Shown piece after piece: positions 996 through 15,156 of a DNA stretch of 64,000 nt; position 1 is the first letter of the stretch, and every line of letters starts with the position of its first letter. The notes under the pieces were generated by a model. The model worked only from the letters and a program-made list of their open reading frames with translations. It searched no databases and was not told the DNA's origin. The position numbers and the translations under genes are program-made. Source of the DNA: Glycomyces xiaoerkulensis (lineage in GTDB: Bacteria > Actinomycetota > Actinomycetes > Mycobacteriales > Micromonosporaceae); NCBI RefSeq assembly GCF_002798405.1, contig NZ_PGGV01000033.1, positions 365,680 to 429,679 of the forward strand, given 5' to 3'.

Positions 996-1393
996 GTGAC
1001 TTCAGCATCAGGCCCGAGGAAGTGCGTAGTGGCGCCACCGCGCTGTTCGACGCCTCTGAGGCAATCTACGAGGCGATGAACACGCTGGCAGAGGATTCGA
1101 GCGCGCTCGAAGGCACGCCCGAGGCCACCGAGTTCACCGGGATCGCCGAATGCCTTAAAGCCGCGGAAGTCTGGGAGAGCGACTACATCGCCGTGCATCG
1201 GGCCGACATCGAGGAGACGGCCAAGTTCGCCGCCGTCTGCGCCGAAACCGGCGAGGAAGTCGACGACTACGGCGCAACGATGTTCGACCAGTACGCCGAT
1301 GTCTACCTCGACGATCGCACCGCTCCCTCGCCGGAGCGCCCCGGCCCCGACCCGGCCGCACAGATCCCGCGCGGCGAGAGCCTGGCGGTGTAG
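992..1393 (+). CDS. WXG100/EspC-like small helical protein
   Basis: This encodes 133 residues, almost wholly predicted helix, acidic, beginning MSDFSIRPEEVRSG. The pattern resembles actinobacterial WXG100/DUF2580 (EspC-like) proteins that accompany type VII secretion substrates, but there is no clean W-x-G, so family placement is by pattern and context. ATG 992 is preferred to an upstream GTG in the same frame because GGAGGTGG sits just before it. The gene is followed after 2 bases by the hydrolase gene, whose N-terminus has a similar helical domain; the two may form a partner pair. A proline-rich tail (about 108-133) follows the helical part. Confidence 0.6.
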   Translation: MSDFSIRPEEVRSGATALFDASEAIYEAMNTLAEDSSALEGTPEATEFTGIAECLKAAEVWESDYIAVHRADIEETAKFAAVCAETGEEVDDYGATMFDQYADVYLDDRTAPSPERPGPDPAAQIPRGESLAV

Positions 1394-1395
1394 CA

Positions 1396-3111
1396 GTGGC
1401 CATCACCTACGGCCTCCTGCTCGAGGCCGATTTCACCGCGCTGGAATCCGTCGGCGAAGCCTGGATGGACCTGTACGGGAATCTCGACGACCAGGCCGCG
1501 ACGATCGGTGAGCTCAAAGCGAAGGACGTCGCCGCGTTCGGCGTCAACCATTGGGAGGGCCGGAACGCCGACACCGCCCGAGAACAGGTGCGGGACATCG
1601 TCGTCGATCTGGACGAACGAGCGGCCGCAGCCCGCCGCGTGTCGGTCTCGATCGCCGACGCGGTCGAAGAATTCCGGGCAGCGCAGTCGGATCTCAACGA
1701 GGCGGTCGCCGAGGTCGATCGTGAGCGGGCCACGGTGACCGACGCGGGCGCTGTCGTCCCGGACACCTCCCGGGGCACCGACAACATCTCCTACGCCCAA
1801 GGCATGAGCACCCGCATAAACGCGGCCCTGGACCGGGCGACCGAGGCGGACGAGGGGCTCAAGGCTGCGATCGGGGTTTGGGCCGAGACCTTCAGCGCGA
1901 GCGAACGCAGCGCACTGATCCAAGGAGCCGCCGATGAGGCCGAAGAGCTGCAAGAGCTCATCGACTCGGGCGCTTCCCCTCAGGCGATCAACGACTGGTG
2001 GAGCGGCCTCGACGAGGCCGAGCGCCTCGGCATCCTCGAAGGCAACCCCGGCCTCATCGCCGATGTGGACGGCATTCCGACCGAAGATCGCGACGCGGCG
2101 AACCGCGACCTGCTCGAGGCCGAGATCGACCGCTTCAGCCCTACGCTCGACGCGGACATCGCCGACCTCGAGGCCCAGTTGGAGGAGCTGGATGCCGCCG
2201 GCGACCGGTTCGACGAGGGCGGCGGGAATCTCGGGGTCCCGCATGAGACCAGCGAGTACCGGGAACTGCGGGAGCAGCTCGAAGCCCTGGAGGTCGAGCG
2301 GGACGATCGGGACTCGCTGGAGAAATTGCAGGACGCGATCAGCGGTCAAGCTCGCACGGACCAGGAGTACTTCCTGCTCGGCTACGACTCGGCCGAGGAC
2401 GGCAAGGCCATCGTGTCGGTCGGCAACCCCGACACCGCCGACAACACCGCGGTGTACGTGCCGGGTACCGGCGGCGACCTGGACGGCGCAAGTGGCGGAG
2501 ACCTGCAGCGAGCTGAGACGATGGCCTGGGACGCTGCCGCCGTTCCAGGCGGTGGGGAAACGGCAGTAGTGATGTGGTTGGACTACGATGCTCCGGACGA
2601 TGCCTTCCTTAATGCACCGAGTTCCTCATACGCGGAGGACGCCTCGGAGCCGCTCACGTCGTTCATGGGCGGGCTCGAGGCGACCAATCATGATCCTGAA
2701 GGAACGACGACGACCGTGATGGGGCACTCCTACGGGACGACGGTCATCGGTGAGGCCGCCAGCGAGAATGGGCTTGCGACTGATCAGATCGTCGCCGTCG
2801 CCAGCCCCGGCATGACGGTCGACCACGCGAGCGAACTCAACATTGACCCTGATGACTTCTACGCCACCACCGCTCCAGGAGACGCCATCCATGCTGCCGC
2901 TGAATCGTCCTTGATTCACGGTCCGGACCCGAGTGATACCGGTCTGAACCTCTCCGACGGACCCGGCTCCGGATTCGGCGGGACGTCGTTTGAGAGCGAC
3001 AGTATGAGTTGGAATCCCATGGAGATCCACAGCAACTACTGGGAAGACGGCAACTCTGCCCGAGACAATATGGCGAAGATCTTCACTGGGAATGGGGATG
3101 AGGTCAGATGA
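1396..3111 (+). CDS. WXG-like N-terminus fused to DUF1023 alpha/beta-hydrolase
   Basis: This encodes 571 residues from a GTG at 1396. Residues 1-120 form a helical WXG-like domain, followed by long acidic helical and coiled segments (about 150-330). Residues about 340-571 are an alpha/beta-hydrolase of the DUF1023 type, with the nucleophile elbow GHSYGT (Ser about 445), a later Asp-containing strand and a candidate His near IHSNYW close to the C-terminus. Such proteins are common in Streptomyces-like genomes beside WXG proteins and are thought to be exported or envelope-associated; the substrate is unknown. It overlaps the lipoprotein gene (ATGA at 3108), which implies co-translation. A role as a secreted effector is inference. 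Confidence 0.75.
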   Translation: MAITYGLLLEADFTALESVGEAWMDLYGNLDDQAATIGELKAKDVAAFGVNHWEGRNADTAREQVRDIVVDLDERAAAARRVSVSIADAVEEFRAAQSDLNEAVAEVDRERATVTDAGAVVPDTSRGTDNISYAQGMSTRINAALDRATEADEGLKAAIGVWAETFSASERSALIQGAADEAEELQELIDSGASPQAINDWWSGLDEAERLGILEGNPGLIADVDGIPTEDRDAANRDLLEAEIDRFSPTLDADIADLEAQLEELDAAGDRFDEGGGNLGVPHETSEYRELREQLEALEVERDDRDSLEKLQDAISGQARTDQEYFLLGYDSAEDGKAIVSVGNPDTADNTAVYVPGTGGDLDGASGGDLQRAETMAWDAAAVPGGGETAVVMWLDYDAPDDAFLNAPSSSYAEDASEPLTSFMGGLEATNHDPEGTTTTVMGHSYGTTVIGEAASENGLATDQIVAVASPGMTVDHASELNIDPDDFYATTAPGDAIHAAAESSLIHGPDPSDTGLNLSDGPGSGFGGTSFESDSMSWNPMEIHSNYWEDGNSARDNMAKIFTGNGDEVR

Positions 3112-3809
3112 GTGTCCGACCGGTACGACGCAGCGCACTCGCTGCGTGTACTGCAATCGTTACTATAGTCGCTCTAGGAGGATGCTCCATTATGTCGCGG
3201 AGTCTGCCAGAACTTGAATTCGATCTGAGTGAGGCCTTCATCCGAATGGACGAGGCTGTAGCGCAGACCATCGACGGGCTTCCCGACTTCCCGGGGTTCC
3301 ATAAACGTACGACACTGGCGCTCGACTGTCCGGAAGAGGGTCGCGAGTCCTACGAGATCGCTTATACCCTTCCTGAGGAAACGATCGGTTCCGACCTAGT
3401 CACCAAGGAGTACTTCGCGGTGCTCAAGGAGCATTGGCCCTCGTTGGGATGGGAGGTCCACGGTGAACGGGACGACGTTGACGGCAACATCGCAAATATA
3501 CAGGCGATAAGACCTGACGGTGTCAACCTCTGGTACCAGAACCAGATAGGGCAGATCGTAATCCACGCTCAGGTCGCCTGCGTGGAGGCTGAGGGGCATC
3601 CGGTGTGTGGTCCTCCGCTCGGTGGCGTCAAACCCGAGAACGACAGCACAAAGGACTGTATGGTTCTCAGTCGGGAGGAGTTGGAGAGCAAGACCGCGGA
3701 TGCAGTCGCTCCGTTCGAGGGCGGGCAGGCGGCGACGATCCCCTTCACCGCGAACGGCACACGCCGCGAGGCCATCGGTCGACCGGAGCCGACCGACAGG
3801 GAGACTTGA
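3108..3809 (+). CDS. Lipoprotein, third gene of the WXG/hydrolase operon
   Basis: This encodes 233 residues. A basic N-terminus, a hydrophobic segment and the lipobox LGGC (Cys about 26) mark it as a secreted, lipid-anchored protein. The mature part holds four further cysteines (about residues 66, 154, 163, 179), suggesting disulfides, and no enzymatic motif. Its start overlaps the stop of the hydrolase gene by four bases, so both are probably made together. A lipoprotein after a WXG-like/hydrolase pair could be an accessory or an immunity-type partner; that is inference from context. Confidence 0.7.
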   Translation: MSVRPVRRSALAACTAIVTIVALGGCSIMSRSLPELEFDLSEAFIRMDEAVAQTIDGLPDFPGFHKRTTLALDCPEEGRESYEIAYTLPEETIGSDLVTKEYFAVLKEHWPSLGWEVHGERDDVDGNIANIQAIRPDGVNLWYQNQIGQIVIHAQVACVEAEGHPVCGPPLGGVKPENDSTKDCMVLSREELESKTADAVAPFEGGQAATIPFTANGTRREAIGRPEPTDRET

Positions 3810-4221
3810 GGGACGACGGCCCGGCCAGCCATCGGGTCGTTGCCCACTCGGCCAAGGTCGAGGCCTCGGTCGGCGCGCGATACTGCTTGGCGTCGTGGGC
3901 GTGCGTCGCTTCGAGCGTGACACGCTCGCGGTGTCCACGGATCGCCCGATCACTGTGTTTGTGCCACAGAGAAATCAGAAATGATGCCGGGTCCGTCTGG
4001 ACGATGTCGTTGACAATGCGATGATCCTGGTTCATCATGCAATCACCGCGTGTGGAGTTCCCCCACAACGGCAACCATTTACGACTATTCCAGAAAAGGT
4101 TACGACAGAACCCTGAAAGAGAAACAAATTCATAAGGAAGCATCTCAAGCCGCCGCCCGGCGGTCCACGTTCGCTAAAACCAGTTCCGCCGGGCGGCCCA
4201 ACACAGAGAGAGCGAGCTCCC
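3810..4221. other. Intergenic stretch with AT-richer core and hairpin
   Basis: About 410 bases without a convincing gene. The middle (about 3960-4140) is distinctly AT-richer than its surroundings. It includes TTGACA at 4010-4015 with a weak CATCAT at 4033-4038 at 17-base spacing, a possible promoter for the gene at 4222. A strong hairpin is annotated separately at 4152-4197. Open frames here are short and lack ribosome binding sites. Confidence 0.45.
4152..4197 (+). promoter_or_regulatory. 12-bp stem hairpin just upstream of the 4222 gene
   Basis: Positions 4152-4163 (GCCGCCCGGCGG) and 4186-4197 (CCGCCGGGCGGC) are perfectly complementary, with a 22-base loop. The structure ends 24 bases before the GTG at 4222, so it lies in the probable 5' leader of that operon. 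It could act as an attenuator, a terminator for upstream transcription or an mRNA-stabilising element. No U-run follows. Function is inference. Confidence 0.4.
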
Positions 4222-4869
4222 GTGTCGTCAGTGACGATACGCCATTCCGGCGTACTTGAAAACACCCATTCGGCCGCCCGACTCGCCGCCGGGCAAGTCT
4301 GGAACTCCGCGCAGTATCCGCCGGGATTCGGTCCCGGCGAGCCGAGCTACGAACCGGCGCACCTGCGCCACCGGCCCGGCGACGACTGGAAGATCGGCGG
4401 CAGACCCCACGACCCCGACGACCCCGGCCCCTACGGCACTCCGGGCTGGAGGCCGGACCGCCGCATCGGCCGCCACCGGCGCGGCGAGCTGCCCGACCCG
4501 CTCCCTGAGGACCGAGCTTCGAGCACCGAGCGGCCGCAGCGGTTCTCCCGCCTCCGTGAAGACGCCTACCGGGCGTTCCTCCGCGACTCCGAAGAACTCC
4601 ACCAGGCGCACTTCGAGGCCCCCGAACCCAGCCTCGCGCTCGTCCGCGTCCGCTGGTTCCTCCGGGTCCTGCTCGCCGTCCTCTACTGGCGGGTCCTGCC
4701 CTTCCCCGAACGACCGAGCCGGGCTATGCGCCGACCTTCGCCGCGCCCTCACGACCGAACCGAGCGCCGGCCTCAAGTGCGGTTCGAAACCGGCGCCGCC
4801 GGACCGATACACCGTCCTGCGATCGGATCCAGACCGACCGGGCGCCGAGCGATCGGAGGCCGCGCCTGA
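4222..4869 (+). CDS. Unrecognised protein with one hydrophobic segment
   Basis: This encodes 215 residues from a GTG at 4222. The N-terminal half is Pro/Asp/Gly/Arg-rich and probably disordered. Residues about 111-133 are helical (REDAYRAFLRDSEELHQ), and about 147-160 form a short hydrophobic helix (VRWFLRVLLAVLYW). The C-terminal 50 residues are Arg/Pro-rich. Its stop shares one base with the ATG of the next gene (TGATG), so the two form an operon. This frame is preferred to the overlapping long frames because it has this coupling and a plausible hydrophobic helix. Family not recognised. Confidence 0.55.
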   Translation: MSSVTIRHSGVLENTHSAARLAAGQVWNSAQYPPGFGPGEPSYEPAHLRHRPGDDWKIGGRPHDPDDPGPYGTPGWRPDRRIGRHRRGELPDPLPEDRASSTERPQRFSRLREDAYRAFLRDSEELHQAHFEAPEPSLALVRVRWFLRVLLAVLYWRVLPFPERPSRAMRRPSPRPHDRTERRPQVRFETGAAGPIHRPAIGSRPTGRRAIGGRA

Positions 4870-5237
4870 TGAGGTCCCGAACCGCACCCGAAGCCGCCCG
4901 CCGCTCCTACCACCGCGCGCTGGTCGACCGCCCACTGCTCGCCACCGTTCCCGACCCGCCCGACCACCGGTCGCTGACCGTGCTCGGCGCGGCCCGGATC
5001 GGCGGGCGGACGGTCGCCTTCGCCACCGAAGCACTCCGCCCGCGCCTGTGGATCGTCACCGAACACGACCTGCCGCACGTGATCGGGTTCCTCACCGGAC
5101 TCGTCCACTCCCGGCCCGACCTGTGGATCTGCGACCCCGACGCCTGGGCCTGGATCAACACCGACACCGTCAGCGCCGACATCAAAGCCGCCGCCGGACG
5201 CGTCTGGACCGACTGCCGGAAGGAATGCGACCGCTGA
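4869..5237 (+). CDS. Unrecognised small protein, coupled to upstream gene
   Basis: This encodes 122 residues, mixed alpha/beta in character (LTVLGAARIGGRTVAFATEAL, then LWIVTEHDLPHVIGFLTGL), with two cysteines in the C-terminal tail (DCRKEC) and one near WICDPD. No membrane segment or signal peptide. Translation is probably coupled to the gene ending at 4869. A strong terminator-like hairpin follows at 5246-5262. I do not recognise the family; an immunity-like or regulatory partner of the upstream protein is possible but unsupported. Confidence 0.6.
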   Translation: MRSRTAPEAARRSYHRALVDRPLLATVPDPPDHRSLTVLGAARIGGRTVAFATEALRPRLWIVTEHDLPHVIGFLTGLVHSRPDLWICDPDAWAWINTDTVSADIKAAAGRVWTDCRKECDR

Positions 5238-5245
5238 AACCGACC

Positions 5246-5262
5246 GTGCCCCGCCGGGGCAC
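5246..5262. terminator. Bidirectional terminator-like hairpin
   Basis: GTGCCCC (5246-5252), a three-base loop and GGGGCAC (5256-5262) form a perfect 7-bp GC stem. It lies between the stop at 5237 and the convergent stop at 5330, the expected place for a shared terminator. There is no clear U-tract, as is usual in high-GC actinobacteria. Confidence 0.55.
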
Positions 5263-5329
5263 GCACGTGTTCTCCCGGCGGCCGCCCCGTCGACCGGGTG
5301 ACCAAGCCCTGCCGACCCGGGCGGTACTC

Positions 5330-7165
5330 TCAACCGCTGGCCATGTCGGCCTCCGGCGAGACCCCGAGGGCTTTCATCAGACGATCTCTGATCTTGTGCT
5401 TCCGTGCCTCATAGAACTCCAAGAAGTCCGTGAGGTCGAGCGGTAGGCCCTCGAGGTCGTTCTCCACCGCGTAGGTCGTCCGCTTCTCCTCACTCGGGAA
5501 GGCCGATGCGATCCAGTCGGCCGGAAGGGTGTCCTGTTTCTCGATGTTGGCGGTACCCGCGAGCAGTTGCAGGTTGGGCAGGAGGTTGACGGCGGCGCGG
5601 AACTCCTCGATCCGATCCGGAGGCACTCCGGCCGTGGCGAGCTTCTTCGGCGTGAAGCGGGATTTCGGGAAGACATGGTCCTCGTGGAACTGCTTACTCA
5701 GATCCAAGCCCGGGTAGAGCACCGAAAGGACGGAGAAGGTCCGCCTCCCTCCGTACTTGAGGTTCAGCAACTCGTCGATCTCAGCGGTGTCGAAGGTCAG
5801 TCCCTTTCCGACGGCCGTCATCGCCGCTTCCACGGCCCCGACCGGAAACCCCGAGGCCGAGTCCGCGCGCAGCGCATCTCGGATACGGGTGAGCAGGGTG
5901 TCGAGGCCCGATCCCCAGATGCCTCGCTTGATCAGCGAGCGGGTGACCCAGTGCTGGAGGGCGAGCCGGTCGGCAGCGTGGGCACTGGAGTCCATGTAGG
6001 CATCTCCGGCGCCCCGCAGGTGCAGGTAGTGCGCGATCGGGACGATGACACTGGCCGCGGTCAGGTTCCGTTCGTTGTAGCCGAACTGCTGGAGCAGTGT
6101 GGCCGCGCGCAGCAGGGCGTTCTTGACCTCCGGCCAAGCGGCCTCCACCCTCGCCATGTTCGCCTGCGTGAAGTTGGTGACCTTGAACCGGACATCCACA
6201 TCCGCGATGGTCAGCGCGGTTTTGAGGACGACGTCCTTGGAGAAGGAGAACTGCCGGCCGGCGTTGCCGTTCAGGTCACTGACGAGTGCCCGGACCTCCT
6301 CGCGGGCGTCGAGTTCCCGCCACTGGTTGGTGGCCATCGACAGCAGCAGATCCGAGTACGAGAGCTGCGTGCCGCCGCTGTTGACCCGGACGAAGATCTC
6401 CAGCACCTTGTCGGCGTCCTGATCGGTGACCAGGAAGTAGTTCATCGGTTTGAGTTCGCGGGTGGCCCAAAACAGGTCGTAGAGCCGCTGGAACGCGTCC
6501 CCGGACCCCGCTATGCCGCGCCGCTCCAGCTCCTTCATGATCGCCGGACCCGAGTTGGCGAGGTCGAGAACCTCCCCGACCCGGAACCACTTGGGATTCG
6601 CAGCGGCATCGGTGTCGGTGAGGAACCGCAGGTCGTACTTCAGGCCGAGTTCTTCGTTCTCGGGATCCTCGGTGAGGTTGAGGTAGAGGCGCTTGACCGG
6701 GAACGCGTCCGGATGGTTCCACCAGGCGTACTTCCTCTTCTCGGCGAAGCTGCCGTACAAGGCGATGTTCAGCGACGTGAGCCGCTGCTGGCCGTCGAGC
6801 ACCGCCGTGGTCCCACCCCCGGCCGGGACGGTCGCCTTGCCGGCGTACGGATTATCGCGCTCGTGGTAGTTGGTCAGGAATTCATAGAAGGTGTACGACT
6901 GCGCGGTCTCAGGTTCGACCTTCCACAGGAGGAAGGACCCGATGGGGTACCCGCGCATCAGGCTGTCGACGATTCTGGTGATCTGACCGGCGTCCCAGAC
7001 GAACTCGCGTTGGATCGCCGGCATGAGGTACTCATGCTTGTGGATGGCGGTGAGCATCTCCTCGATGCTGAGCGGGGTTTGGAACGACAATGCGATGCTG
7101 CTTTCATTCTCGGCTGGGGGTGGATGCGGCCATAGAACGGAGATCGTCTCCCCGGCGGGGGCCAC
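5330..7165 (-). CDS. DUF262 + HNH (DUF1524-type) nuclease, GmrSD/SspE-like
   Basis: This encodes 611 residues. The N-terminal DUF262 (GmrS-like, NTP-dependent) domain shows IQREFVW (51-57) and DGQQR (124-128), the ParB-like nucleotide-site motif. The C-terminal domain is of DUF1524/His-Me-finger type with HEDHVFPKS (His494, Asp496, His497) and a later NLLPNLQLL...NIEKQ segment. Fused DUF262-DUF1524 proteins include GmrSD (type IV restriction of modified DNA) and SspE, both anti-phage nucleases. It is the last gene of the four-gene operon, 13 bases after the AIPR gene. The annotated GTG at 7165 has a poor ribosome site; a later start near residues 26-37 is possible. Defence nuclease is a strong inference; its trigger is unknown. 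Confidence 0.85.
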   Translation of the reverse strand: MAPAGETISVLWPHPPPAENESSIALSFQTPLSIEEMLTAIHKHEYLMPAIQREFVWDAGQITRIVDSLMRGYPIGSFLLWKVEPETAQSYTFYEFLTNYHERDNPYAGKATVPAGGGTTAVLDGQQRLTSLNIALYGSFAEKRKYAWWNHPDAFPVKRLYLNLTEDPENEELGLKYDLRFLTDTDAAANPKWFRVGEVLDLANSGPAIMKELERRGIAGSGDAFQRLYDLFWATRELKPMNYFLVTDQDADKVLEIFVRVNSGGTQLSYSDLLLSMATNQWRELDAREEVRALVSDLNGNAGRQFSFSKDVVLKTALTIADVDVRFKVTNFTQANMARVEAAWPEVKNALLRAATLLQQFGYNERNLTAASVIVPIAHYLHLRGAGDAYMDSSAHAADRLALQHWVTRSLIKRGIWGSGLDTLLTRIRDALRADSASGFPVGAVEAAMTAVGKGLTFDTAEIDELLNLKYGGRRTFSVLSVLYPGLDLSKQFHEDHVFPKSRFTPKKLATAGVPPDRIEEFRAAVNLLPNLQLLAGTANIEKQDTLPADWIASAFPSEEKRTTYAVENDLEGLPLDLTDFLEFYEARKHKIRDRLMKALGVSPEADMASG

Positions 7166-7178
7166 AGTATTGCAGTGC

Positions 7179-8900
7179 TCAGTGGGGCTCCTGGACGGCG
7201 CGCAGGAAGCGGTCGGTGAAGCCCTTGGTGCGGACCAGCTCGGCGAGGCGATGTCCCGGTGCTTCGCTTCTCCAGTGCCGATCCAGGTCGGGGATCAGCG
7301 CTTCGACGCAGCGTTCGACCTTCTCGCGGTCCCAGATGCGCTCCAGGAGTTCATCGCAGTAAGCCTTCGTCTTCCGCGGGGTCGCGGGCGGTCGCCGTCC
7401 GCCTGAGAGCCGGTGTACCGCCGCGGCCATGAGCAGGAACCGCGCCGGTTTCCAGATGCGGTCGACGCGGTTGTTGCGCAGCAGCCAGTCGACCTGGTAC
7501 CAGATCGAGGCCGCGGTGTAGTAAGCGATCGGTGGAGTGTCGGTGCGGTAGACGGCGAGCTTATCGTCCTTGAGGAGCTTCGCCGGCCTGGTCGCCTCGT
7601 GTACGCGGTTGCGGAACACCGCCGCGTAGGACTGGGTGAGCTGGTTCTGGTTCAGCACCCTGGTCCTGGTGACCGACCGGTCGCCGTCGAACTGCCCGGC
7701 CCGGCGCTCGTAGTAGAGGTCCCGGGGCGGCACCGAGGTACGGAAGTACGCCTCGATGTTCCGGTGGATCTGCGGGTCGGCGGCGAGGCTCTCCTTGGCG
7801 ATCAGCGTCTGGCGGTTGGTGGCCTGAGTGATGGCCTCGGCGATGCTCTCGTCCTCGGTCTCGATCACGGTCAGCTTCACCTGGACGTCGTCTGTCAACT
7901 GGTGGCGGTTCTCGAACAGGACGTGCCCGGTCTGGCAGCCGTTGACGATCTGGAAATCGGCCAGGGTGCAGTTCTCCCCGGAGGCGTCGAAGCTCTCGGC
8001 GATCACGGTGATGCCGTTGTTGAGCACCGCGAACCGTTTGCGCTGCGCCTCGTCGGCCAGGGTCCGGGCGATGTCGTCGTTGATCTCGTTCGATTGGCCC
8101 AGATACTCGCGGAGGTTGTCTTCGAACAGGAATTTCCGGATGCTGCCGCCCTCGTCCACCAGGATCCTGCCGACCAGCTCCGAAGCGGGCAGCATCCCGG
8201 TCCACGCCTGCTTGACGCCGTCCATCCCCGCCATGCCGATCTTGGACGGCCAGTCGAACGAGGCCCGGACCTTCCGGTTGGAGCGCTGGTAGAGGCGCTG
8301 CACACGTCGTGAACCGGCGACCTCGAAGCTGACCGACTCGAACCGGTCCAGCGCCTCCACCGTCCGCTCGGCCGAACGGCATTTCGCCAGCAGGTCCTCG
8401 TTCGGATCCCCGCCGCAATGCACGTACCACGCCTCCAGGCGGGGACTGCCGACGGCGTTCCTGTCGTGGTGGTCGTAGAGCACGTGCAGCGCCTGCTGGA
8501 GCTCCAGGATCTCCGGCGAGGCGGTGTAGGCGATCGGTTCGCGGCCGCAGATCTGCCGCAGGTTGTCGGCCAGGTCCGCCACCACCTTCCCCTCGGCGCT
8601 GGTGCTGGTCTTGGCCTGGACGGCCACGACCACGACGTTCATCTCTCGGAAGCTCTCCGCGGCGTTCTTGACACCGTCAAGATCGTGGTATAGCTCGCCG
8701 TTGACGACGATTCCCCAGGCGTCGACCCCGAGGTCGTTCCCGCCGCCGGTCTGGTGGGCGTCCGGCGCGAAACGCTCCTCGTGGAACTGGTGCAGGACGC
8801 AGTGGGCGGCGAAGACCTCGAACAACTGCGGCTCGTCCAAGTCGGGCAGTTCGCGCTCGGCTTGGAAGTGGCGGAGTCGCTCCTGGACGATCTCGTTCAC
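7179..8900 (-). CDS. AIPR-family protein with PD-(D/E)XK-like N-terminus
   Basis: This encodes 573 residues from a GTG at 8900 preceded by GAGGAG. The AIPR (abortive infection phage resistance) core is visible as DNLREYLGQSNEIN (261-274), NNGITVIA (294-301), FQIVNGCQTG (316-325) and the later ATNRQTLI. The N-terminus has GGGNDLGVD (Asp60), then a strand ending AVQAK (Gln95, Lys97), which reads as the D...QxK active site of Mrr-like PD-(D/E)XK nucleases. AIPR proteins occur in Abi and composite defence systems; their biochemistry is poorly known. It lies 16 bases after the ATPase gene and 13 before the DUF262-HNH gene. The nuclease assignment rests on motif reading only. Confidence 0.85.
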   Translation of the reverse strand: MNEIVQERLRHFQAERELPDLDEPQLFEVFAAHCVLHQFHEERFAPDAHQTGGGNDLGVDAWGIVVNGELYHDLDGVKNAAESFREMNVVVVAVQAKTSTSAEGKVVADLADNLRQICGREPIAYTASPEILELQQALHVLYDHHDRNAVGSPRLEAWYVHCGGDPNEDLLAKCRSAERTVEALDRFESVSFEVAGSRRVQRLYQRSNRKVRASFDWPSKIGMAGMDGVKQAWTGMLPASELVGRILVDEGGSIRKFLFEDNLREYLGQSNEINDDIARTLADEAQRKRFAVLNNGITVIAESFDASGENCTLADFQIVNGCQTGHVLFENRHQLTDDVQVKLTVIETEDESIAEAITQATNRQTLIAKESLAADPQIHRNIEAYFRTSVPPRDLYYERRAGQFDGDRSVTRTRVLNQNQLTQSYAAVFRNRVHEATRPAKLLKDDKLAVYRTDTPPIAYYTAASIWYQVDWLLRNNRVDRIWKPARFLLMAAAVHRLSGGRRPPATPRKTKAYCDELLERIWDREKVERCVEALIPDLDRHWRSEAPGHRLAELVRTKGFTDRFLRAVQEPH

Positions 8901-8916
8901 AAGCGCGTGCTCCTCT

Positions 8917-11900
8917 TCAGTCCGAGGCCCTCACCGAGGCGAGGATCTCCTCGGCGGTGGGGGCGGTCGGCGGATGGTGGCTCAGGCACATCGGGACGTC
9001 GACCCGTTCGGTGGCCTTCCCGTCTGCGGCGAGGTAGAACTGTCCGGCCCGCAGGTGGGCGAGGTCCACGGTCGACCCTCCCTTGTTCTCGGCCACCTGG
9101 GTCGCGGCCGAGATCTGGGAGGGCGAGTTGATGCGTCCGTACCAGTGGGTGGCGCAGTTGCCGACGATCCGGTTGTGGATCCCCTTGGGGGCCTGGGTCG
9201 CGAACACCATGCCGAGGCCGTACTTCCGGGCCTGCGACACCAGGGCGAGCGTGGAGTCGAGGCAGACGGTCGATCCCGAGGAGGGGGCGATCGTCTGCGC
9301 CTCGTCGATCACGAACAGGGCCGAGAGCGGCCGGTCGACCGCCGGGTTCCGCTTGGCCCAGGAGAACAGCGCCAACTCCAGTTGGTTGACGAACCCTTGG
9401 CGCTGCTCCTCGGTCGGCAGCCCCAGGAAGTTGACCACCGAGACGCGGGTGCGTTTGCCCGGGCTCGGCCGCAGCAGCACCGCCGGATCGAGCGGCTCGC
9501 CGGTGCCGCCGAAGACCCGGTCGTTGATCATCGCCGCTCGCAGCGTCGCCGCGACCTTGGCGGCGATCTCCTCGGCCTTCGGAAGGGTGCTGACGCCTTC
9601 GGGCAGCTCGTCGAGGAAATCGAGGAAACCGCCGAGGTCCGAGGCGCCTCCCCTCGCGTAGAAGGCGAGAGCCTCCCGGAGCACGGCCCGGGCGTGGTCG
9701 TCCTTGGAGGCGGCGCGGGCGATGCGCGCCCGCGGCACCAGCGAGGCCACCGCCGTGTCGACGGCGATCTCCATCTCGTCCGGGTCGTCGGCGACGGCGG
9801 CGAAATCCGGCAGCGGGCGGAAGCTCAGCGGACGGCCCCCGGTGCGTCCGGGCGTCCACACCGTGACCTCCACGCTGCTCATGTATTGGGCGGCCGCCGC
9901 CTCATCCCCGGGAAGCCAGTGCTCGGGCGGCTCCGGCCAGGCGCTGCCGAGCCGCGAGAGGTCGTTGTTGGGATCGAGGACGATCGCCGGGACGCCCTGG
10001 AGCGCCGCGGCCTCGATGATGCGGCGCAGCAGCACGGTCTTGCCCGAACCCGACCCGGCGAACACGCCGGTGTGCTTGGGCATCGATCCGGTATCCAACC
10101 GGACCGGCTCGCCGTCCGCTCCCCGCCCCACCGGCAGCCGCACCGACTCCGATGAAGCCTGGCCGCCGGTCCCGGTGCGCGGGGCCGCGGCCCGGCCGCC
10201 CGCCTCGGGTCTGGTTCTCGGGCCGGACAGGGGGAAGTCGAGGATCCGCCCGGCCCCGGACGGCGGCAGGTCCGGCCGTACCGGCTCGGGCTCGGGCGGT
10301 GCCGACTCCTCGGGAGGCGGCCCGAACACGTGCTGGAACAGGACGGTCCGCGAGGCGGGTCGGCGCGCCCGCAGCCACGCCTCCAGGCCGGGCCGGCGCT
10401 GCCGGTGCAGATGGTGGAGCGCGGCGAACACCCGCAGGTCGTCCTCGGTAACCATGATGACGGTGCCTTCGCGTTCGAATTCGGCGAGAGTCTTTGCCGC
10501 CTTCGTGTTCCGGCCCCAGGACCCCCACTCGCCCGATGGGGCGGTCACCCACAGGACCGCCCGGCTCCGGTGGAGGCGGTTGCTCCGCCCGATTCCGGCC
10601 CTGGCCGAAAGGCCCGCGACCCGATGCTGCACCGCGTTCGGGTTGGTCTTCGAGATCGCCAGGAAGCTCCAGCTCCTCCGGGGCTCGGCGTCCTCGTCGT
10701 GCAGCTCGGCGTGGAACGCCTGGCGCTTGCCGACCGGCAGCCCCACCTGGGACGCGGCGGGGTCCCGGCCCGACTCCACCTGGAAGGACCTGAGCGCGGC
10801 ATCGAGGAGCTGCGGCATCCGGGTGTCCACGGTGTCGGGGGAGCGGGCCGTGTCGATATCGGCCATCGCCCTGTAGTTCTCGAAATCGGCGTCCAGGCCC
10901 TCGCCGGGGGCGGGCGAGGCCGCCTGCGGCCTGCCCTCCTTCTGATCGGGCGCCACGAGCTCGGTCGCCTCGGTCACCTCGCCCAGCTCCACGCACCGGT
11001 TCAGGTGGGCCGAAGCGCTGCGCAGCAGATCACGGGGGCTGAGCAAGGCGGCCTTCCCCAACGCGGCGTCGCCGAACGGGTAGGACGGATAGGGCGGCTC
11101 GAAGCCCGACCGCCGGTACACCGGCTCCAGGACCGCCTCCAGGAGCGCGGCCGCGACCTTAGGATCCGGGAGGGTGTTGTCGAGCCAGATCTTGGATTCG
11201 AACCGCTGCAGAACGGTGTCGACCGTCGCCCGCGTGAACTCGCTCCAGGTCGTGTCCAGGCAGGACAGCAGTACGGTGCTGCGGCGGGTGACGTCCCGCA
11301 GCTCGGTCAGGCCACTGCCGAGCATGTCGAGCAGCTCGACGGTGGACTCGGCCCCCTCGGCCGCGGCGGTGCGTTGGGAGGAGCGCACGATGTCGTCGAC
11401 CTGGTCGACGGCGATCACGGTGGCCCCGCAGAGCGCCATGAGCTGCGACAGGTCCCTGACCAGCTCGATCGGGCTTCGCGGGGGTGCCGTGCCGAATCCG
11501 GGAAGCGATTCGACGTCGAATTCTCCTCCGGCGAGGTAGGCGTCGGCCGGGGCGGCCCGCCGCTCGTCGTTCGAGTGGAGCAGCAGGAGGGCGCGCAGGG
11601 TGTTCCGGGTGCCGGCCAGTGAGCGGTCGATCCCGCGCACCGACTCGGTGAACTGGGCGACCGAGTCGGGGTCGGGCAGCCTCGACTCCAGCAGCCGGTG
11701 CCGCAGCCCCTCCGGAAGGTCGGCCAGGTCGGCCAGGCGCTCGAGGAGGTGCGCCAGGCCCGATTCGGCCGACCGGTGCGGCATGTCGAGGGCGTACACG
11801 AAGCTTCCGGCCAGGTTGGCCCAGAAGTCGCGCACGTCGACGATGTTGAGGCGCACGAAGAACCCGCCCCGGTCCTGGACGTCGCGCCGCGCCCGCCCCA

Positions 11901-12120
11901 GCAGGTGGCTCTTGCCGCTGCCGCCCTCGCCCACCAGCGGGAGTCCGGTGACGCTCGACCGGGGGCTGTTCTCGGCGGCGGCGATGCGCGCCTCTATTGC
12001 CCGGAGCGCGGGTTCGTTGATGCCGTTGACGTGCGGCCGGGACCGGTCGTCCCAGATGTCGTCGGGAGTCACCGCGAAGTCGCTGGGGACGCTGCGGAGC
12101 GCCTCGAGGGCGGAGATCAC
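8917..12120 (-). CDS. Two-ATPase protein: N-terminal AAA, C-terminal HerA-like
   Basis: This encodes 1067 residues from a GTG overlapping the upstream stop (GTGA). The N-terminal P-loop is GEGGSGKS (64-71), with a Walker B-like TVIAVDQVDD near 235-245. After a linker of about 250 residues comes a HerA/FtsK-type motor: Walker A AGSGSGKT (688-695), Walker B ALFVIDEAQ (Asp939, Glu940), sensor FATQAPKG and a candidate arginine finger in HWYGR. HerA ATPases partner nucleases in defence (Sir2-HerA, DUF4297-HerA, DptH). The fused AAA module resembles conformational sensor ATPases. Probably the DNA-engaged motor or sensor of the cassette; oligomeric state unknown. Confidence 0.85.
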   Translation of the reverse strand: MISALEALRSVPSDFAVTPDDIWDDRSRPHVNGINEPALRAIEARIAAAENSPRSSVTGLPLVGEGGSGKSHLLGRARRDVQDRGGFFVRLNIVDVRDFWANLAGSFVYALDMPHRSAESGLAHLLERLADLADLPEGLRHRLLESRLPDPDSVAQFTESVRGIDRSLAGTRNTLRALLLLHSNDERRAAPADAYLAGGEFDVESLPGFGTAPPRSPIELVRDLSQLMALCGATVIAVDQVDDIVRSSQRTAAAEGAESTVELLDMLGSGLTELRDVTRRSTVLLSCLDTTWSEFTRATVDTVLQRFESKIWLDNTLPDPKVAAALLEAVLEPVYRRSGFEPPYPSYPFGDAALGKAALLSPRDLLRSASAHLNRCVELGEVTEATELVAPDQKEGRPQAASPAPGEGLDADFENYRAMADIDTARSPDTVDTRMPQLLDAALRSFQVESGRDPAASQVGLPVGKRQAFHAELHDEDAEPRRSWSFLAISKTNPNAVQHRVAGLSARAGIGRSNRLHRSRAVLWVTAPSGEWGSWGRNTKAAKTLAEFEREGTVIMVTEDDLRVFAALHHLHRQRRPGLEAWLRARRPASRTVLFQHVFGPPPEESAPPEPEPVRPDLPPSGAGRILDFPLSGPRTRPEAGGRAAAPRTGTGGQASSESVRLPVGRGADGEPVRLDTGSMPKHTGVFAGSGSGKTVLLRRIIEAAALQGVPAIVLDPNNDLSRLGSAWPEPPEHWLPGDEAAAAQYMSSVEVTVWTPGRTGGRPLSFRPLPDFAAVADDPDEMEIAVDTAVASLVPRARIARAASKDDHARAVLREALAFYARGGASDLGGFLDFLDELPEGVSTLPKAEEIAAKVAATLRAAMINDRVFGGTGEPLDPAVLLRPSPGKRTRVSVVNFLGLPTEEQRQGFVNQLELALFSWAKRNPAVDRPLSALFVIDEAQTIAPSSGSTVCLDSTLALVSQARKYGLGMVFATQAPKGIHNRIVGNCATHWYGRINSPSQISAATQVAENKGGSTVDLAHLRAGQFYLAADGKATERVDVPMCLSHHPPTAPTAEEILASVRASD

Positions 12121-12752
12121 AGCGCCTCGATCGCGATCAGGTGCCGGTCCTTGTTCGCGAGCCGCACCGCGGCCCGGTCGTCGGCCTCGGTGAGGGTCTT
12201 CTGATTCGACTCGGGGATCAACCGGATCTCGTGTGCGGCGAGCAGCTCGCCCAGGACCGAGTCGACCTCCTCGCGCTCGATGTCATCGAGTAGCTCGCGC
12301 AGTCGGCGCAGCGGCACCCAGTCGGAGGCGCCGCCGACCAGTTCGGTGTAGGCCTTGCGGATCCGGTCGGCGGTGGAGGGCTCGACCCGGGCCGGGTAGA
12401 GATCGGCCAGCTCGGTGCCGGTGCGGTCCATGTGGGCCGAGAAGTCGCCGATGAACGCCCACAGGATCCGGGCGGTGCGCTGGCTGACTCCGGAGGGGGC
12501 CTTCTCGGACAGCAGCCGCCGGGCGGCCAGCCAGCCGGCGTCGGTCAGCTCGTAGGCGTACGGTCTCACCGTTCGGTCGATCGACACCAGGCCGTGTTCG
12601 GTGAGCTTGCGCTGCGCGGGAGTCTCGACCTTGTCGAAGCCGAAGGCGGCCTTGAAATCCTTGGTGGTGCCGGTGCCGCGCAGGTGCACCAGCGTCAGCA
12701 GCAGGTTGAACTCGGGGACGGTGAGCTCGAGGTCGGCCATGGGGGGTTCCAT
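12117..12752 (-). CDS. Winged-helix protein heading the defence-like operon
   Basis: This encodes 211 residues. Residues about 5-75 read as a MarR-like winged helix (LLLTLVHLRGTGTTKDF, then QRKLTEHGLVSIDRTVRPY as recognition helix and wing); the rest is helical with an acidic second half. It is the first gene and shares four bases with the ATPase gene. It may be the operon's own repressor, for which the GACGTC repeats at 12895-12940 are candidate sites, or a structural DNA-binding subunit, since analogous BREX and HerA loci carry such small proteins. ATG 12752 is used; ATG 12740 is an alternative. Role is inference. Confidence 0.75.
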   Translation of the reverse strand: MEPPMADLELTVPEFNLLLTLVHLRGTGTTKDFKAAFGFDKVETPAQRKLTEHGLVSIDRTVRPYAYELTDAGWLAARRLLSEKAPSGVSQRTARILWAFIGDFSAHMDRTGTELADLYPARVEPSTADRIRKAYTELVGGASDWVPLRRLRELLDDIEREEVDSVLGELLAAHEIRLIPESNQKTLTEADDRAAVRLANKDRHLIAIEAL

Positions 12753-12894
12753 TCCGTGACGTAGGCGTGCGGTGGATCAGACCGATCTGCGCACGATATC
12801 GCTTCAGTCACGTGCTGTCAGCCCTCAAAGTTGCGCCCAGCGGCCGATAGTCGGAAGACCGACAGATCGGCCGCCGAGAACCTTCACCTGATGT

Positions 12895-12940
12895 AACTGA
12901 CGTCACTGACGTCCGACGTCACTGACGTCGCGCGTCAGTT
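12895..12940. promoter_or_regulatory. Cluster of GACGTC units inside an inverted repeat
   Basis: ACTGACGTC occurs three times (12896-12904, 12905-12913, 12921-12929). GACGTC-centred units recur about every 7-9 bases (starting near 12898, 12907, 12914, 12923), ending in a degenerate GCGCGTCA. The whole block is flanked by AACTGACG (12895-12902) and CGTCAGTT (12933-12940), a perfect inverted repeat. It lies 143-188 bases upstream of the winged-helix gene, in position for an operator array. Which protein binds is unknown; the cassette's winged-helix protein is the first candidate. Confidence 0.6.
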
Positions 12941-13145
12941 GGCTTTCACGAGTCGAGCGAGACCGCCTCCGGGCTACCGAGGCGCACCGCGGCGGCCGAC
13001 CAGCCGCCGCATGAGCGACCGCAATCAGCACCCGAACCCCGAGGAGGTGCTTGAGCGCCTCGAGCACATGGAGCGCGAACCGGAGCGAGCGCGCGCGAAG
13101 TACGGGGAAGCAATTCGGTGCCTTGACGGAGTCTGGGGTGCCACG

Positions 13146-13184
13146 CTCCGTGGGACTCTTGCCCGGCGCGCAGGAAGCGGTCGG
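13146..13184 (-). pseudogene. Remnant of an AIPR gene 3' end
   Basis: Positions 13165-13184 are identical over 20 bases to 7197-7216 in the AIPR gene, and about 13 of the 18 preceding bases also match. Read on the minus strand in the same frame it gives SDRFLRAGQESH, against TDRFLRAVQEPH-stop at the AIPR C-terminus, with at least one silent difference. This looks like a leftover of a second, diverged AIPR gene at the upstream border of the cassette. It is too short for certainty. Confidence 0.4.
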
Positions 13185-13219
13185 AGTTGCGAAGGGGAGG
13201 ACCGCCTGAGAGGTCGCGG

Positions 13220-13642
13220 TCACAGCGCTTCGGCGGCCCTGGCGAGCAGGCGGCGCAGCGTCTCGCGCTCCTGCGGCGTGAAGGCGTCGGCCAGGCGCTG
13301 CTCCACCGATCCGGCGCGCTCGTCGGCCTCGGCCAGGACCGTGCGGCCCTGATCGGTCAGCGTCGTCTCGGTGGCGTGGCGCAGCCACGGGTGCGGGGTG
13401 CGTTCGACGAGCCCGCGTTCGGTCAGGGTCTTCAGCACCGAGTTGATCGCCTGCGGCGTGACCAGGCACTCGCGTGCCAGCCCGGCGGGGGAGATCCCGG
13501 GGGTCCGGTCGATCGCCAGGAGCGCGGCGTAGGCGGCGACGCTCAGGTCGAGGTCGCGCAGGGCGCCGGACTTCGCCGACATGAGGTGTTGCTCGGCCCG
13601 TTTGATGTCGAGTCCGAGCCGCTGATCGACGGGGATGGTCAC
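13220..13642 (-). CDS. MarR-family transcriptional regulator
   Basis: This encodes 140 residues, the normal MarR length. The winged helix is clear: ISPAGLARECLVTPQAINSV as helix-turn-helix, LTERGLVERT and a basic wing with DQGRTVLAEA, flanked by N- and C-terminal dimerisation helices. It diverges from the SDR gene at 13714 across an AT-rich 70-base gap, the usual layout for a MarR protein controlling a neighbouring detoxifying or metabolic enzyme. The ligand is unknown. Confidence 0.9.
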   Translation of the reverse strand: MTIPVDQRLGLDIKRAEQHLMSAKSGALRDLDLSVAAYAALLAIDRTPGISPAGLARECLVTPQAINSVLKTLTERGLVERTPHPWLRHATETTLTDQGRTVLAEADERAGSVEQRLADAFTPQERETLRRLLARAAEAL

Positions 13643-13677
13643 GAAATGACTGTACAGGGTCGTCGCTCTGTAAGGAG

Positions 13678-13706
13678 CTTGTTAGTTATAAAGAGTTTGA
13701 TAGTGT
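13678..13706 (+). promoter_or_regulatory. AT-rich MarR/SDR divergent promoter region
   Basis: Between the divergent starts at 13642 and 13714 lies a strikingly AT-rich run. TTGTTA (13679-13684) with TAGTGT (13701-13706) at 16-base spacing is a possible weak promoter for the SDR gene, and the run contains AGTTATAAAGAGTTTGATAG with imperfect symmetry, a candidate MarR site. Only the base composition and position are firm. Confidence 0.35.
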
Positions 13707-13713
13707 GGTGTGC

Positions 13714-14568
13714 ATGAACGATCTTCTCTTCCCCATGCACGGCAAGCACGTCCTCATCACCGGCGCCACCCGCGGCCTCGGGCTGCGCCTGGCCGAACGA
13801 CTCGCCGAGGCCGGAGCCGTACTGCTCCTGCACGGCCGCGACCCCGAACGCCTCGACGCCGCCGCCGACCGCATCGAACGCGAGCGGCCCGGCGCGGAGA
13901 TCCACCGCTTCCTGGCCGACCTGAGCGACCTCGACCAGGTGGCCGCGCTGGCGAAGTCGGTCGCCGATCGGGCGCCCCGGCTCGACGTCCTGGTCAACAA
14001 CGCGGTAGTCGGGGGCGGCTCCGACACCGCCCGCCGGGAGGTGAGCGCCCAGGGCCACGAGCTGCGGCTCGCGGTGAACCACCTGGCGCCGCTGCTGCTG
14101 GCCCGGTCGCTCGGCCGCCTGCTCGCGGCGAGCGCGCCGTCCCGGGTGGTGAACGTCGCCTCGCTCGGCCAGGCGCCACTTGACTTCGACGACGTGATGC
14201 TGGAACGCGAGTACGAGGGGGTACGGGCCTACTGCCAGAGCAAACTCGCCATGATCATGTCCACTATCGACATGGCCGAGCGGTTCGAGCCGCAGGGCGT
14301 CAGCGTGAACGCGATCCACCCGGCGCACCTGATGGACACCGAGATCGTCCGCCAGAGCGGCTTCACGCCCCTGGCCGGCGTCGATGAGGGCGCTGAGCCG
14401 ACCCTCCGCCTGATCGGCGATCCCGCGCTGCAGGAGGTCACCGGCCGCTACTTCGAGCAGTCACAGCCGACGAAGGCCCACGACCAGGCATACGACCCCG
14501 AAGCGCGCGCCCAGCTCGCGGCGGTGTCGGAGCGGTTGATCGCCCCGTACGCACCCGGGGACGGCTGA
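13714..14568 (+). CDS. Short-chain dehydrogenase/reductase (SDR)
   Basis: This encodes 284 residues from ATG 13714. Classical SDR features are present: TGATRGLG nucleotide-binding loop near the N-terminus, HGRDPER after beta-2 (suggesting NADP preference), DVLVNNA, a Ser in NVASLG and the YCQSK catalytic pair. The C-terminus has the INAIHPAHLMDTE-type segment of retinol-dehydrogenase-like SDRs. Substrate unknown. It is divergent from the MarR gene and probably its target. GTG codons at 13705 and 13708 are possible but less likely starts. Confidence 0.9.
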   Translation: MNDLLFPMHGKHVLITGATRGLGLRLAERLAEAGAVLLLHGRDPERLDAAADRIERERPGAEIHRFLADLSDLDQVAALAKSVADRAPRLDVLVNNAVVGGGSDTARREVSAQGHELRLAVNHLAPLLLARSLGRLLAASAPSRVVNVASLGQAPLDFDDVMLEREYEGVRAYCQSKLAMIMSTIDMAERFEPQGVSVNAIHPAHLMDTEIVRQSGFTPLAGVDEGAEPTLRLIGDPALQEVTGRYFEQSQPTKAHDQAYDPEARAQLAAVSERLIAPYAPGDG

Positions 14569-14584
14569 CCCCGGCCGCTCCGTC

Positions 14585-14605
14585 GGGCCTCAGGAGGTGA
14601 GGCCC
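14585..14605. terminator. Shared terminator hairpin between SDR and bcp genes
   Basis: GGGCCTCA (14585-14592) and TGAGGCCC (14598-14605) form a perfect 8-bp stem with a 5-base loop. It sits between the convergent SDR stop (14568) and the bcp coding end (stop at 14590), overlapping the last codons of bcp. Position and symmetry suggest a bidirectional terminator. Confidence 0.55.
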
Positions 14606-15063: not shown

Positions 15064-15156
15064 GAGTCAGCACACTACCGCCCGTACCTGACAATCGTCT
15101 GGGAGCTCCCTTGGCGGCGGCTGCGTGCCGTCCCCGACTGGACAACCACCCCCTTG

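What the first reader, a model, noticed from the sequence alone, without database searches (positions are those of the whole stretch)
5330..12752. Four-gene wHTH / AAA-HerA / AIPR / DUF262-HNH operon: candidate new defence system
Four genes on one strand with 4-, 16- and 13-base junctions encode a winged-helix protein, an ATPase with both an AAA and a HerA motor, an AIPR protein with a nuclease-like N-terminus, and a GmrSD/SspE-like nuclease. Each part is known from defence loci (HerA with Sir2 or DUF4297; AIPR in Abi and Mza; DUF262-DUF1524 in GmrSD and SspE), but I do not recall this exact set as a named system. A sensor/motor with two possible nucleases could be a multi-component restriction or abortive-infection machine.
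Basis: partly seen in the sequence, partly recalled or inferred. Interest (0 to 1): 0.9.

Follow-up and report, generated by a model that had tools for sequence, protein, structure and literature searches.

The report
Modular HerA defence core, swappable effectors
Three of the four genes form a mobile unit, probably an anti-phage one, built on a conserved DNA-motor core that related bacteria pair with different killing enzymes; the fourth gene looks like a separate, already known enzyme.

Summary
The four ORFs are real, but they are not one four-part machine. In 84 loci (the best 80 of 347 relatives, three plasmid records, the window) an AAA+-HerA fusion follows a small wHTH-like gene. The pair has mutually exclusive partners: AIPR/AbiU (19, two of them remnants), a DUF559 nuclease (31), TIR plus a ParA-like ATPase (22), DUF4365 plus PDC-M02B (3), or none recognised (9). 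A possible fifth, CARF-HEPN, lies beside the core in four loci of this genus, one in this genome. Empty sites show wHTH-HerA-AIPR moving as a unit. A DUF262 relative is in none of the 83 other stretches; the window's matches BrxU, a Type IV restriction enzyme. Best reading: a HerA-centred anti-invader module whose sensor-motor core switches on an exchangeable effector, here AIPR with an invariant D..QxK nuclease-like motif (27 of 27). The closest described kind is the 'HerA-FtsK capture' systems with Orc/CDC6 ATPases; a defining domain (iREase) could not be shown. New variant of a known kind. Defence is inferred from context, not tested; no structure prediction finished.

The parts
12117..12752 (-). 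wHTH-like protein, 211 aa (core gene 1); overlaps the HerA start by 4 bases
   Evidence: ORF and translation; a relative lies upstream of HerA on the same strand in 84 of 84 loci, by my gap rule in 81; winged-helix assignment weak
8917..12120 (-). AAA+-HerA fusion ATPase, 1067 aa (core gene 2)
   Evidence: AAA_16 and DUF87; PADLOC HerA and mad8; PDB HerA profile hits; Walker residues conserved in 55 aligned sequences
11131..11964 (-). AAA+ domain (about residues 53-330): Walker A GEGGSGKS, AVDQxD strand, invariant RF 306-307
   Evidence: no solved relative by phmmer
10261..10848 (-). middle region (residues 425-620); possible iREase, not shown
   Evidence: alignment A9; no PDB hit better than E 0.16; no hhalign support
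9019..10140 (-). HerA motor domain (residues 661-1034): AGSGSGKT, DEAQ, QARKYGL
7179..8900 (-). AIPR/AbiU effector, 573 aa; AGAGGAG precedes its GTG
   Evidence: AIPR 138 bits; PADLOC AbiU 331 bits over residues 2-570; junction sequence
8301..8900 (-). AIPR N-terminal nuclease-like region with invariant E28, D56, D60, Q95, A96, K97
   Evidence: 27 of 27 aligned proteins; fold not confirmed
5330..7165 (-). BrxU/HEC-05-type Type IV restriction enzyme (DUF262-HNH): neighbour, not part of the conserved unit; start may be 7090
   Evidence: PDB 7p9k 535 bits; HEC-05 715 bits; no relative in the 83 other fetched stretches; motifs RIVDS, DGQQR, DHVFP in the translation
123..14598 (.). variable island holding the operon; conserved flanks 1-122 and 14599 onward

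Best explanation
wHTH-HerA-AIPR (7179-12752) is a three-gene, mobile anti-invader module of a modular family. SHOWN: the wHTH-like gene and the AAA+-HerA gene are a constant core; the core is paired with one of several mutually exclusive partners; in this window the partner is AIPR with an invariant D..QxK nuclease-like N-terminus; at one chromosomal site the three genes are present or absent together. INFERRED: the core is a ring-forming ATPase that senses invading or abnormal DNA (the fast-evolving wHTH protein and the AAA+ domain giving recognition or loading, HerA gripping and moving along DNA), and on engagement it switches on the bound effector. Here the activated AIPR nuclease would cut DNA and stop the phage or kill the cell; in sister loci the same core would switch on a TIR NADase, a DUF559 or DUF4365 nuclease, or perhaps HEPN RNases. 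The BrxU-like gene would add an independent layer against modified phage DNA.
For: Core constancy: a wHTH relative upstream of HerA on the same strand in 84 of 84 loci, 81 of them by the gap rule. Exclusive partners with operon-like spacing: median gaps HER-AIPR 19, DUF559-wHTH 4, TIR-ParA -1, ParA-wHTH 14.5 bases. In 101 family genomes 13 of 16 AIPR places above 390 bits adjoin a HerA match (my reading). The triad persists at 27-41% identity (L140-L143). Unit mobility: at the fdhD site L156 has 116 bases between flanks that are about 6.8 kb apart in L097. Nuclease-like motif invariant in 27 of 27. Effector motifs kept: TIR WCxxE in 22 of 22, ParA-like KGGVGR in 22 of 22, DUF559 ExD in 22 of the 22 longer proteins aligned. 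Defence neighbours in some loci: pPIWI-RE, type I RM, type I-G cas genes, DrmC-like and CARF-HEPN genes. Working analogue: HerA-DUF4297 (abstract and outline of PMC11291478).
Against: No phage challenge or biochemistry was seen. No structure prediction finished, so complex formation, the iREase and the nuclease fold are unproven. Profile comparison gave no support for the middle region or the AIPR N-terminus as nuclease folds. Nine of 84 loci have no recognised partner, so the core may act alone or with an effector elsewhere. Three of 16 strong AIPR places do not adjoin a detected HerA match (one at a contig start, one broken), nor do four weaker ones. In 396 phylum genomes only 6 had a strong match, all in the window's order; 39 others had weak ones, mostly to parts of the HerA domain. 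Defence neighbours were looked for in chosen loci, with no enrichment control. HerA and effector distances correlate (r 0.93-0.97), but without a species-tree control.
Confidence: 0.6

Rival explanations
1. Pump-to-nuclease ('capture') model: HerA physically pulls invader DNA through the ring into the attached nuclease, as proposed for HerA/FtsK capture systems.
For: This is the published proposal for Orc/CDC6-HerA-wHTH-REase neighbourhoods (PMC10853773 sections 22 and 26); AIPR, DUF559 and DUF4365 partners are nuclease-like.
Against: The same core is paired with TIR plus a ParA-like ATPase in 22 of 84 loci and lies beside CARF-HEPN-type genes in four; such effectors need activation, not DNA delivery.
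Confidence: 0.22
2. One reading: a sensor/motor with two nucleases, AIPR and DUF262-HNH, acting together.
For: All four genes lie on one strand with short gaps.
Against: DUF262 relative in 0 of 83 other fetched stretches; 1 of 3 family BrxU-like genes adjoins HerA; BrxU cuts modified DNA as a purified enzyme (PMC8565348 abstract and passages); uncertain start and no RBS seen.
Confidence: 0.04
3. A DNA-maintenance or mobile-element module (segregation, conjugation or integration) rather than defence; the effectors would be addiction or processing enzymes.
For: HerA/FtsK motors and ParA-like ATPases occur in segregation (PMC10853773 and PMC7159879, passages); the unit is mobile; three relatives are in records labelled plasmids, one of them 11.9 Mb long.
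Against: The recurrent partners that I annotated are effector-type and interchangeable; no relative confirmed in viral contigs. I did not search for integrases or relaxases as such.
Confidence: 0.12
4. The wHTH-like gene is only a transcriptional regulator of the operon and no part of the machine.
For: It is the first gene in the AIPR-type operons; small, possibly winged-helix; near-palindromes lie upstream in the window.
Against: In the DUF559, TIR and DUF4365 types it sits inside the operon, after the effector and directly before HerA; the palindrome is not seen in 14 other upstream regions. It evolves fast (mean column identity 38% over 42 sequences, against 49% over 55 for HerA).
Confidence: 0.2

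Closest known systems
'HerA-FtsK capture' systems with an Orc/CDC6 AAA+ ATPase (Rakesh, Aravind, Krishnan 2024, PMC10853773)
   Same: HerA motor coupled to an AAA+ ATPase, a wHTH and a nuclease in mobile neighbourhoods; predicted anti-invader role (sections 22 and 26)
   Different: Here AAA+ and HerA are one polypeptide with a constant separate wHTH-like gene, and partners include AIPR, DUF559, DUF4365 and TIR/ParA. The words AIPR and DUF559 do not occur in that paper's main text; its supplements were not read; iREase not shown here
HerA-DUF4297 and HerA-Sir2 (Nezha, name recalled) two-gene systems
   Same: HerA ATPase with an enzymatic effector; HerA-DUF4297 is a dsDNA-cutting abortive-infection complex (PMC11291478, abstract and outline)
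   Different: Two-component systems with other effectors and no wHTH gene; that their HerA has no fused AAA+ domain is recalled. PADLOC and NCBIfam HerA models match the window protein only weakly
BRC, BREX-related capture (PMC12839542, passages)
   Same: HerA/FtsK with an Orc/Cdc6-like ATPase and a wHTH-type protein
   Different: BRC has PglZ, DUF6079, STAND and DUF4007 components; none is among the Pfam hits of the four operon proteins
AbiU / AIPR
   Same: The effector is a nearly full-length AbiU-model match, 331 bits
   Different: PADLOC treats AbiU as a single protein (recalled); here it goes with the HerA core. A 2012 paper gives AIPR an N-terminal HEPN domain (PMC3506569 passage); this family shows D..QxK instead
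BrxU, GmrSD-family Type IV restriction enzyme
   Same: The DUF262 protein, 535 bits to 7p9k over residues 30-601
   Different: Nothing notable; not part of the module
MADS (mad8)
   Same: HerA domain matches the mad8 model at 75.6 bits
   Different: None of the other three operon proteins matches another mad model

Membership tests
HerA-FtsK capture, Orc/CDC6 class | HerA/FtsK motor domain | tested here: met
HerA-FtsK capture, Orc/CDC6 class | AAA+ ATPase of the Orc/CDC6 family | tested here: inconclusive
   AAA_16 over its cut-off; Orc/CDC6 clade not resolved; no solved relative
HerA-FtsK capture, Orc/CDC6 class | inactive REase between the AAA+ core and a C-terminal wHTH | tested here: inconclusive
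   a conserved middle region exists but neither hhalign nor PDB searches identify it
HerA-FtsK capture, Orc/CDC6 class | wHTH component | tested here: inconclusive
   weak winged-helix hits in a minority of 42 members and in L004
HerA-FtsK capture, Orc/CDC6 class | active REase | tested here: inconclusive
   nuclease-like motif in AIPR 27 of 27, fold unproven; DUF559 in 31 of 84 loci, but TIR/ParA in 22 of 84
HerA-DUF4297 / HerA-Sir2 | DUF4297 or Sir2 partner gene | tested here: not met
   no such Pfam hit in the four operon proteins
MADS | mad1-mad8 gene set (recalled) | tested here: not met
   of the four operon proteins only HerA matches a mad model, mad8; most flanking genes were not scanned with PADLOC
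MZA | MzaE equivalog | tested here: not met
   38.4 bits against a cut-off of 1050
AbiU (PADLOC model) | full-length match to the AbiU profile | tested here: met
   331 bits, protein 2-570, profile 3-535 of 537
BrxU / GmrSD | DUF262 with DGQQR motif and DUF1524/HNH with DHIYP-type motif | tested here: met
   RIVDS, DGQQR and DHVFP in the translation, compared with the motifs named for GmrSD homologues in PMC8565348; 535 bits to 7p9k
BrxU / GmrSD | cleaves modified-cytosine DNA | not testable with these tools
   needs biochemistry
SspE | match to SspE models | tested here: not met
   at most 22.4 bits, against 715 for HEC-05

The most novel reading that the evidence does not exclude
An undescribed type of defence platform of actinobacteria: one conserved wHTH plus AAA+-HerA sensor-motor that acts as a general activation switch for unrelated effectors (AIPR, DUF559 and DUF4365 nucleases, a TIR NADase with a ParA-like ATPase, and perhaps CARF-HEPN/CBS-HEPN RNases), rather than as a pump that feeds DNA to a nuclease.
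Probability: 0.4. Interest if true: 0.78.

Novelty: new variant of a known kind. Interest (0 to 1): 0.6.

Why it matters
If right, a system common in this bacterial family (62 of 101 sampled family genomes have a strong HerA relative; 6 of 396 in a phylum-wide sample) has gone unnamed: its parts match PADLOC proteins with unrelated names. Because nucleases and a TIR domain are paired with the same core in related loci, it is a natural experiment on an open question about HerA/FtsK defence: does the motor feed DNA to a nuclease, or does it sense DNA and switch on whatever effector it carries? Swapping effectors between cores in a laboratory host would answer it directly.

Tried and rejected
Rejected: a four-gene system (DUF262 not conserved); SspE-like identity of DUF262; MADS and MZA membership. 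A5 against the PDB gave calmodulins from E 5e-5 (best 60 of 239 shown): implausible and discarded as compositional. Searches that led nowhere: viral contigs (174 pattern matches, no relative confirmed), the AIPR profile against the PDB (none at E 1), terminator scan (4 found, 3.7 expected) and promoter scan (1 found, 0.4 expected), hhalign among all modules, the palindrome upstream of wHTH (not conserved). A self-alignment of P0004 (A7) was made only so that the genome search would take it as an alignment.

Limits: the 80 genome loci are those most similar to the window protein out of 347, so partner frequencies are biased. Six of the ten window ORFs scanned lay outside the operon; four of these (12906-13469, 13642-14328, 14441-16009, 4228-5034, all minus) are not among the genes called later, so most true flanking genes were not scanned with PADLOC. 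Genes were called with my own codon-usage caller, which missed five DUF559 genes later found by tblastn and cut some others short. Absence of a partner means absence from the fetched stretch. One search used 83 of 84 loci (L040 too short as called); one search dropped 12 rows of 96 that I judged near-redundant. One search used E 1e-20 and E 1e-40 as limits, so weaker relatives were not seen. No paper holds three of AIPR, HerA, DUF4365, DUF559, phage defence. Of 26 papers holding HerA and AIPR, 25 were listed; by title only PMC3506569 and PMC9122126 concern defence. I read passages of the first; of the second only the listing.
Full report
WHAT IS THERE. The four ORFs exist as described, on the minus strand. 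Pfam gives AAA_16 and DUF87/HerA in the 1067-aa protein, AIPR in the 573-aa protein, GmrSD_N with a sub-cut-off GmrSD_C in the 611-aa protein, and nothing in the 211-aa protein. PADLOC gives AbiU (331 bits), HEC-05 (715 bits) and mad8 (75.6 bits) with weaker HerA models, and nothing for the first gene. NCBIfam gives only sub-cut-off hits.

THE CORE AND ITS PARTNERS. A profile of the HerA protein found 347 relatives in the genome collection; the best 80 were kept. With three plasmid records and the window this makes 84 loci. A wHTH relative lies upstream of HerA on the same strand in all 84: 81 by the gap rule, while in L031, L040 and L048 the wHTH match ends at 9977 and the best HerA segment starts further in. 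The rest of the operon differs and is mutually exclusive: AIPR downstream in 19, of which L030 keeps only about 24 residues and L031 about 106 and L012 is cut by the contig end; a DUF559 protein upstream in 31; TIR plus a KGGVGR ParA-like ATPase upstream in 22; DUF4365 plus a second protein (PADLOC PDC-M02A and PDC-M02B for L043) upstream in 3; none recognised in 9, of which L014 ends inside HerA and L080 has a TPR-type protein upstream. L052 also has a ParA-like match, far from the core. Median gaps: HER-AIPR 19, DUF559-wHTH 4, TIR-ParA -1, ParA-wHTH 14.5 bases.

A POSSIBLE FIFTH PARTNER, IN THIS GENOME. The window's genome has a second core copy (L095). With three other genus genomes (L104, L105, L106) it shares two genes beside the core. 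One is CARF-HEPN (Csx1/Csm6-like) by PADLOC in L105 and L106, and by similarity to these in L095 and L104. The other, in L106, has CBS domains and a sequence that I read as a HEPN RxxxxH motif; its L105 counterpart has no Pfam hit and they are only 22-25% alike. In L095, L104 and L105 both genes point away from the core; in L106 the CBS gene is in line with it. So the pairing is suggestive only. Near L105's core are DrmC-like, Druantia-type and GajB-like matches.

THE TREE. In a HerA tree of 83 loci the TIR types form one clade, AIPR types need 6 changes, DUF559 types 8 (before correction for missed genes), and the whole labelling 15 changes against a shuffled mean of 47. A second tree of 84 rows (13 rows added, 12 dropped), with divergent AIPR and CARF types, gives 13 changes against 46.8. 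Partners are thus mostly inherited with the core and have changed several times. The root is unknown, and L141, L004, L106 and L003 are long branches. Pairwise distances of HerA correlate with those of its partners (r 0.83 for wHTH, 0.93-0.97 for effectors); without a species-tree control this is not proof of interaction.

AIPR IS TIED TO THE CORE. In 101 family genomes 70 have a HerA match, 8 of them only at E 6.5e-6 or weaker, leaving 62 strong. The AIPR profile has 16 strong places (over 390 bits; split genes counted once, for G038 by inference across two contigs). By coordinates 13 adjoin a HerA match; G047:C74 begins near a contig start, G047:C75 has none detected, and G115 is broken and stands alone. 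Four weaker places (100-140 bits) do not adjoin HerA. The triad holds at 27-41% identity (L140-L143). In 27 aligned AIPR proteins 35 columns are invariant; they include E28, D56, D60, Q95, A96 and K97, a D..QxK pattern as in PD-(D/E)xK nucleases (pattern recalled), and parts of NNG, VNGxQT and NxQT motifs. hhalign and PDB searches did not confirm the fold.

THE UNIT MOVES. In the genus 13 of 22 genomes have a strong HerA match and one a weak one. In 6 the triad lies within about 3 kb of fdhD; in the window's genome, G011 and G019 it lies elsewhere. Of six genomes without it there that I fetched, four (G017, G002, G009, G012) keep both flanks and two (G021, G001) show only the left one. In L156 116 bases separate flanks that are about 6.8 kb apart in L097; the right flank resumes about 35-180 bases beyond the AIPR stop, and part of the roughly 1 kb left of wHTH is also present in genomes without the triad. 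At the window's own site, sequence right of 14599 matches all 21 other genus genomes, 20 of them over long stretches, at 77-86%. The left flank 1-122 is found 2.2, 4.9 and 6.2 kb from it in G020, G013 and G019, and 0.7 kb away (87 bases) in G004; not in the G011 stretch. The operon therefore lies in a variable region of about 14.5 kb.

THE FOURTH GENE. The DUF262 protein matches PDB 7p9k over residues 30-601 at 535 bits. 7P9K occurs once in the text of the BrxU structure paper; that passage was not shown, and that 7p9k is BrxU itself is recalled. The paper describes BrxU as a GmrSD-family Type IV enzyme that uses nucleotides and cuts 5mC, 5hmC and glc-5hmC DNA (PMC8565348: abstract and passages). 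The GmrSD motifs named there (RLFDS, DGQQR, DHIYP) appear as RIVDS, DGQQR and DHVFP. No relative is in the 83 other fetched stretches, and of three in 101 family genomes only the window's adjoins HerA. In the plasmid studied there, brxU likewise sits inside a BREX operon without being part of canonical BREX.

SURROUNDINGS. Some core loci lie beside known defence genes: pPIWI-RE (L020), type I RM (L016) and type I-G cas genes (L057; L059 shares the same gene clusters). These loci were chosen by eye and no enrichment test was run. Of the nine partnerless loci, L014 is cut and L080 has a TPR-type gene; neighbours that I scanned for L023, L029, L044, L070 and L073 look like housekeeping or unrelated genes.

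RANGE. Phylum-wide, 6 of 396 genomes have a strong match, all in the window's order; 39 more have weak matches, mostly to parts of the HerA domain; only two candidates a genome were scored. The named loci lie in several actinobacterial families, and one plasmid relative is in Methylobacterium. No relative was confirmed in viral contigs.

HOW IT MAY WORK. HerA-DUF4297 is the nearest characterised analogue: effector layers stacked on a HerA hexamer, both enzymes activated by assembly, dsDNA cleavage and abortive infection (PMC11291478 abstract and outline). The 'HerA-FtsK capture' proposal (PMC10853773 sections 22 and 26) has Orc/CDC6 and HTH domains for localisation and HerA for bringing DNA to a nuclease. 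The window module fits that class in parts, but a TIR effector on the same core suggests a switch rather than a feeder. I take 'DNA-sensing motor that activates an exchangeable effector' as most likely (0.6 for the whole statement); sensing, complex formation and killing are inferred.

NOVELTY. In the library I found no description of this core with AIPR (listings, with passages read of seven papers). The main text of PMC10853773 has no mention of AIPR or DUF559, but it does describe Orc/CDC6-HerA-wHTH-REase neighbourhoods and related Orc/Cdc6 proteins fused to TIR. A remark on unpublished observations in PMC9503650 notes HerA systems with an endoDNase in place of sirtuin. Effector exchange around HerA is therefore a known theme; this core and its set of partners look like a new variant.

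Noticed in passing
G000:C2:37598-40702 (L095): A second wHTH-HerA core in the same genome, beside a CARF-HEPN-type gene and a second conserved gene, with large helicase-like genes nearby.
   Followed up: partly
window 12899-12929: Two adjacent near-palindromes (GACGTCAGTGACGTC type, at 12899 and 12915) upstream of the wHTH gene; not seen upstream of wHTH in 14 relatives.
   Followed up: partly
window 13219-14574: A MarR-family gene and a divergent gene that match, as a block at 79%, a different place in the close relative G013 (C79); the relative's second gene reads like a short-chain dehydrogenase.
   Followed up: partly
window 992-5237: Within the same variable island, plus-strand genes including a 571-aa protein with an Abhydrolase_8 domain, preceded by a small protein.
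   Followed up: no
L003 (NZ_LR134464.1): The DUF559-type module, with a VapB/PIN pair and a DEAD helicase, sits between rplN and rpsQ, splitting a ribosomal-protein gene cluster; the record is labelled a plasmid, perhaps wrongly.
   Followed up: no
L057 13859-21945; L059: Type I-G cas genes (Cas7g, Cas56g, Cas3g, Cas8g, Cas4-Cas1g in L057) downstream of the DUF559-type module; L059, another genus, shares the gene clusters.
   Followed up: partly
L030, L031: AIPR has decayed to a short C-terminal remnant behind HerA: natural effector loss.
   Followed up: partly
several genomes (e.g. G038, G055, G071, G105): HerA protein matches split into two pieces within one open frame, suggesting a long insert near profile position 620 between the AAA and HerA halves.
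   Followed up: no
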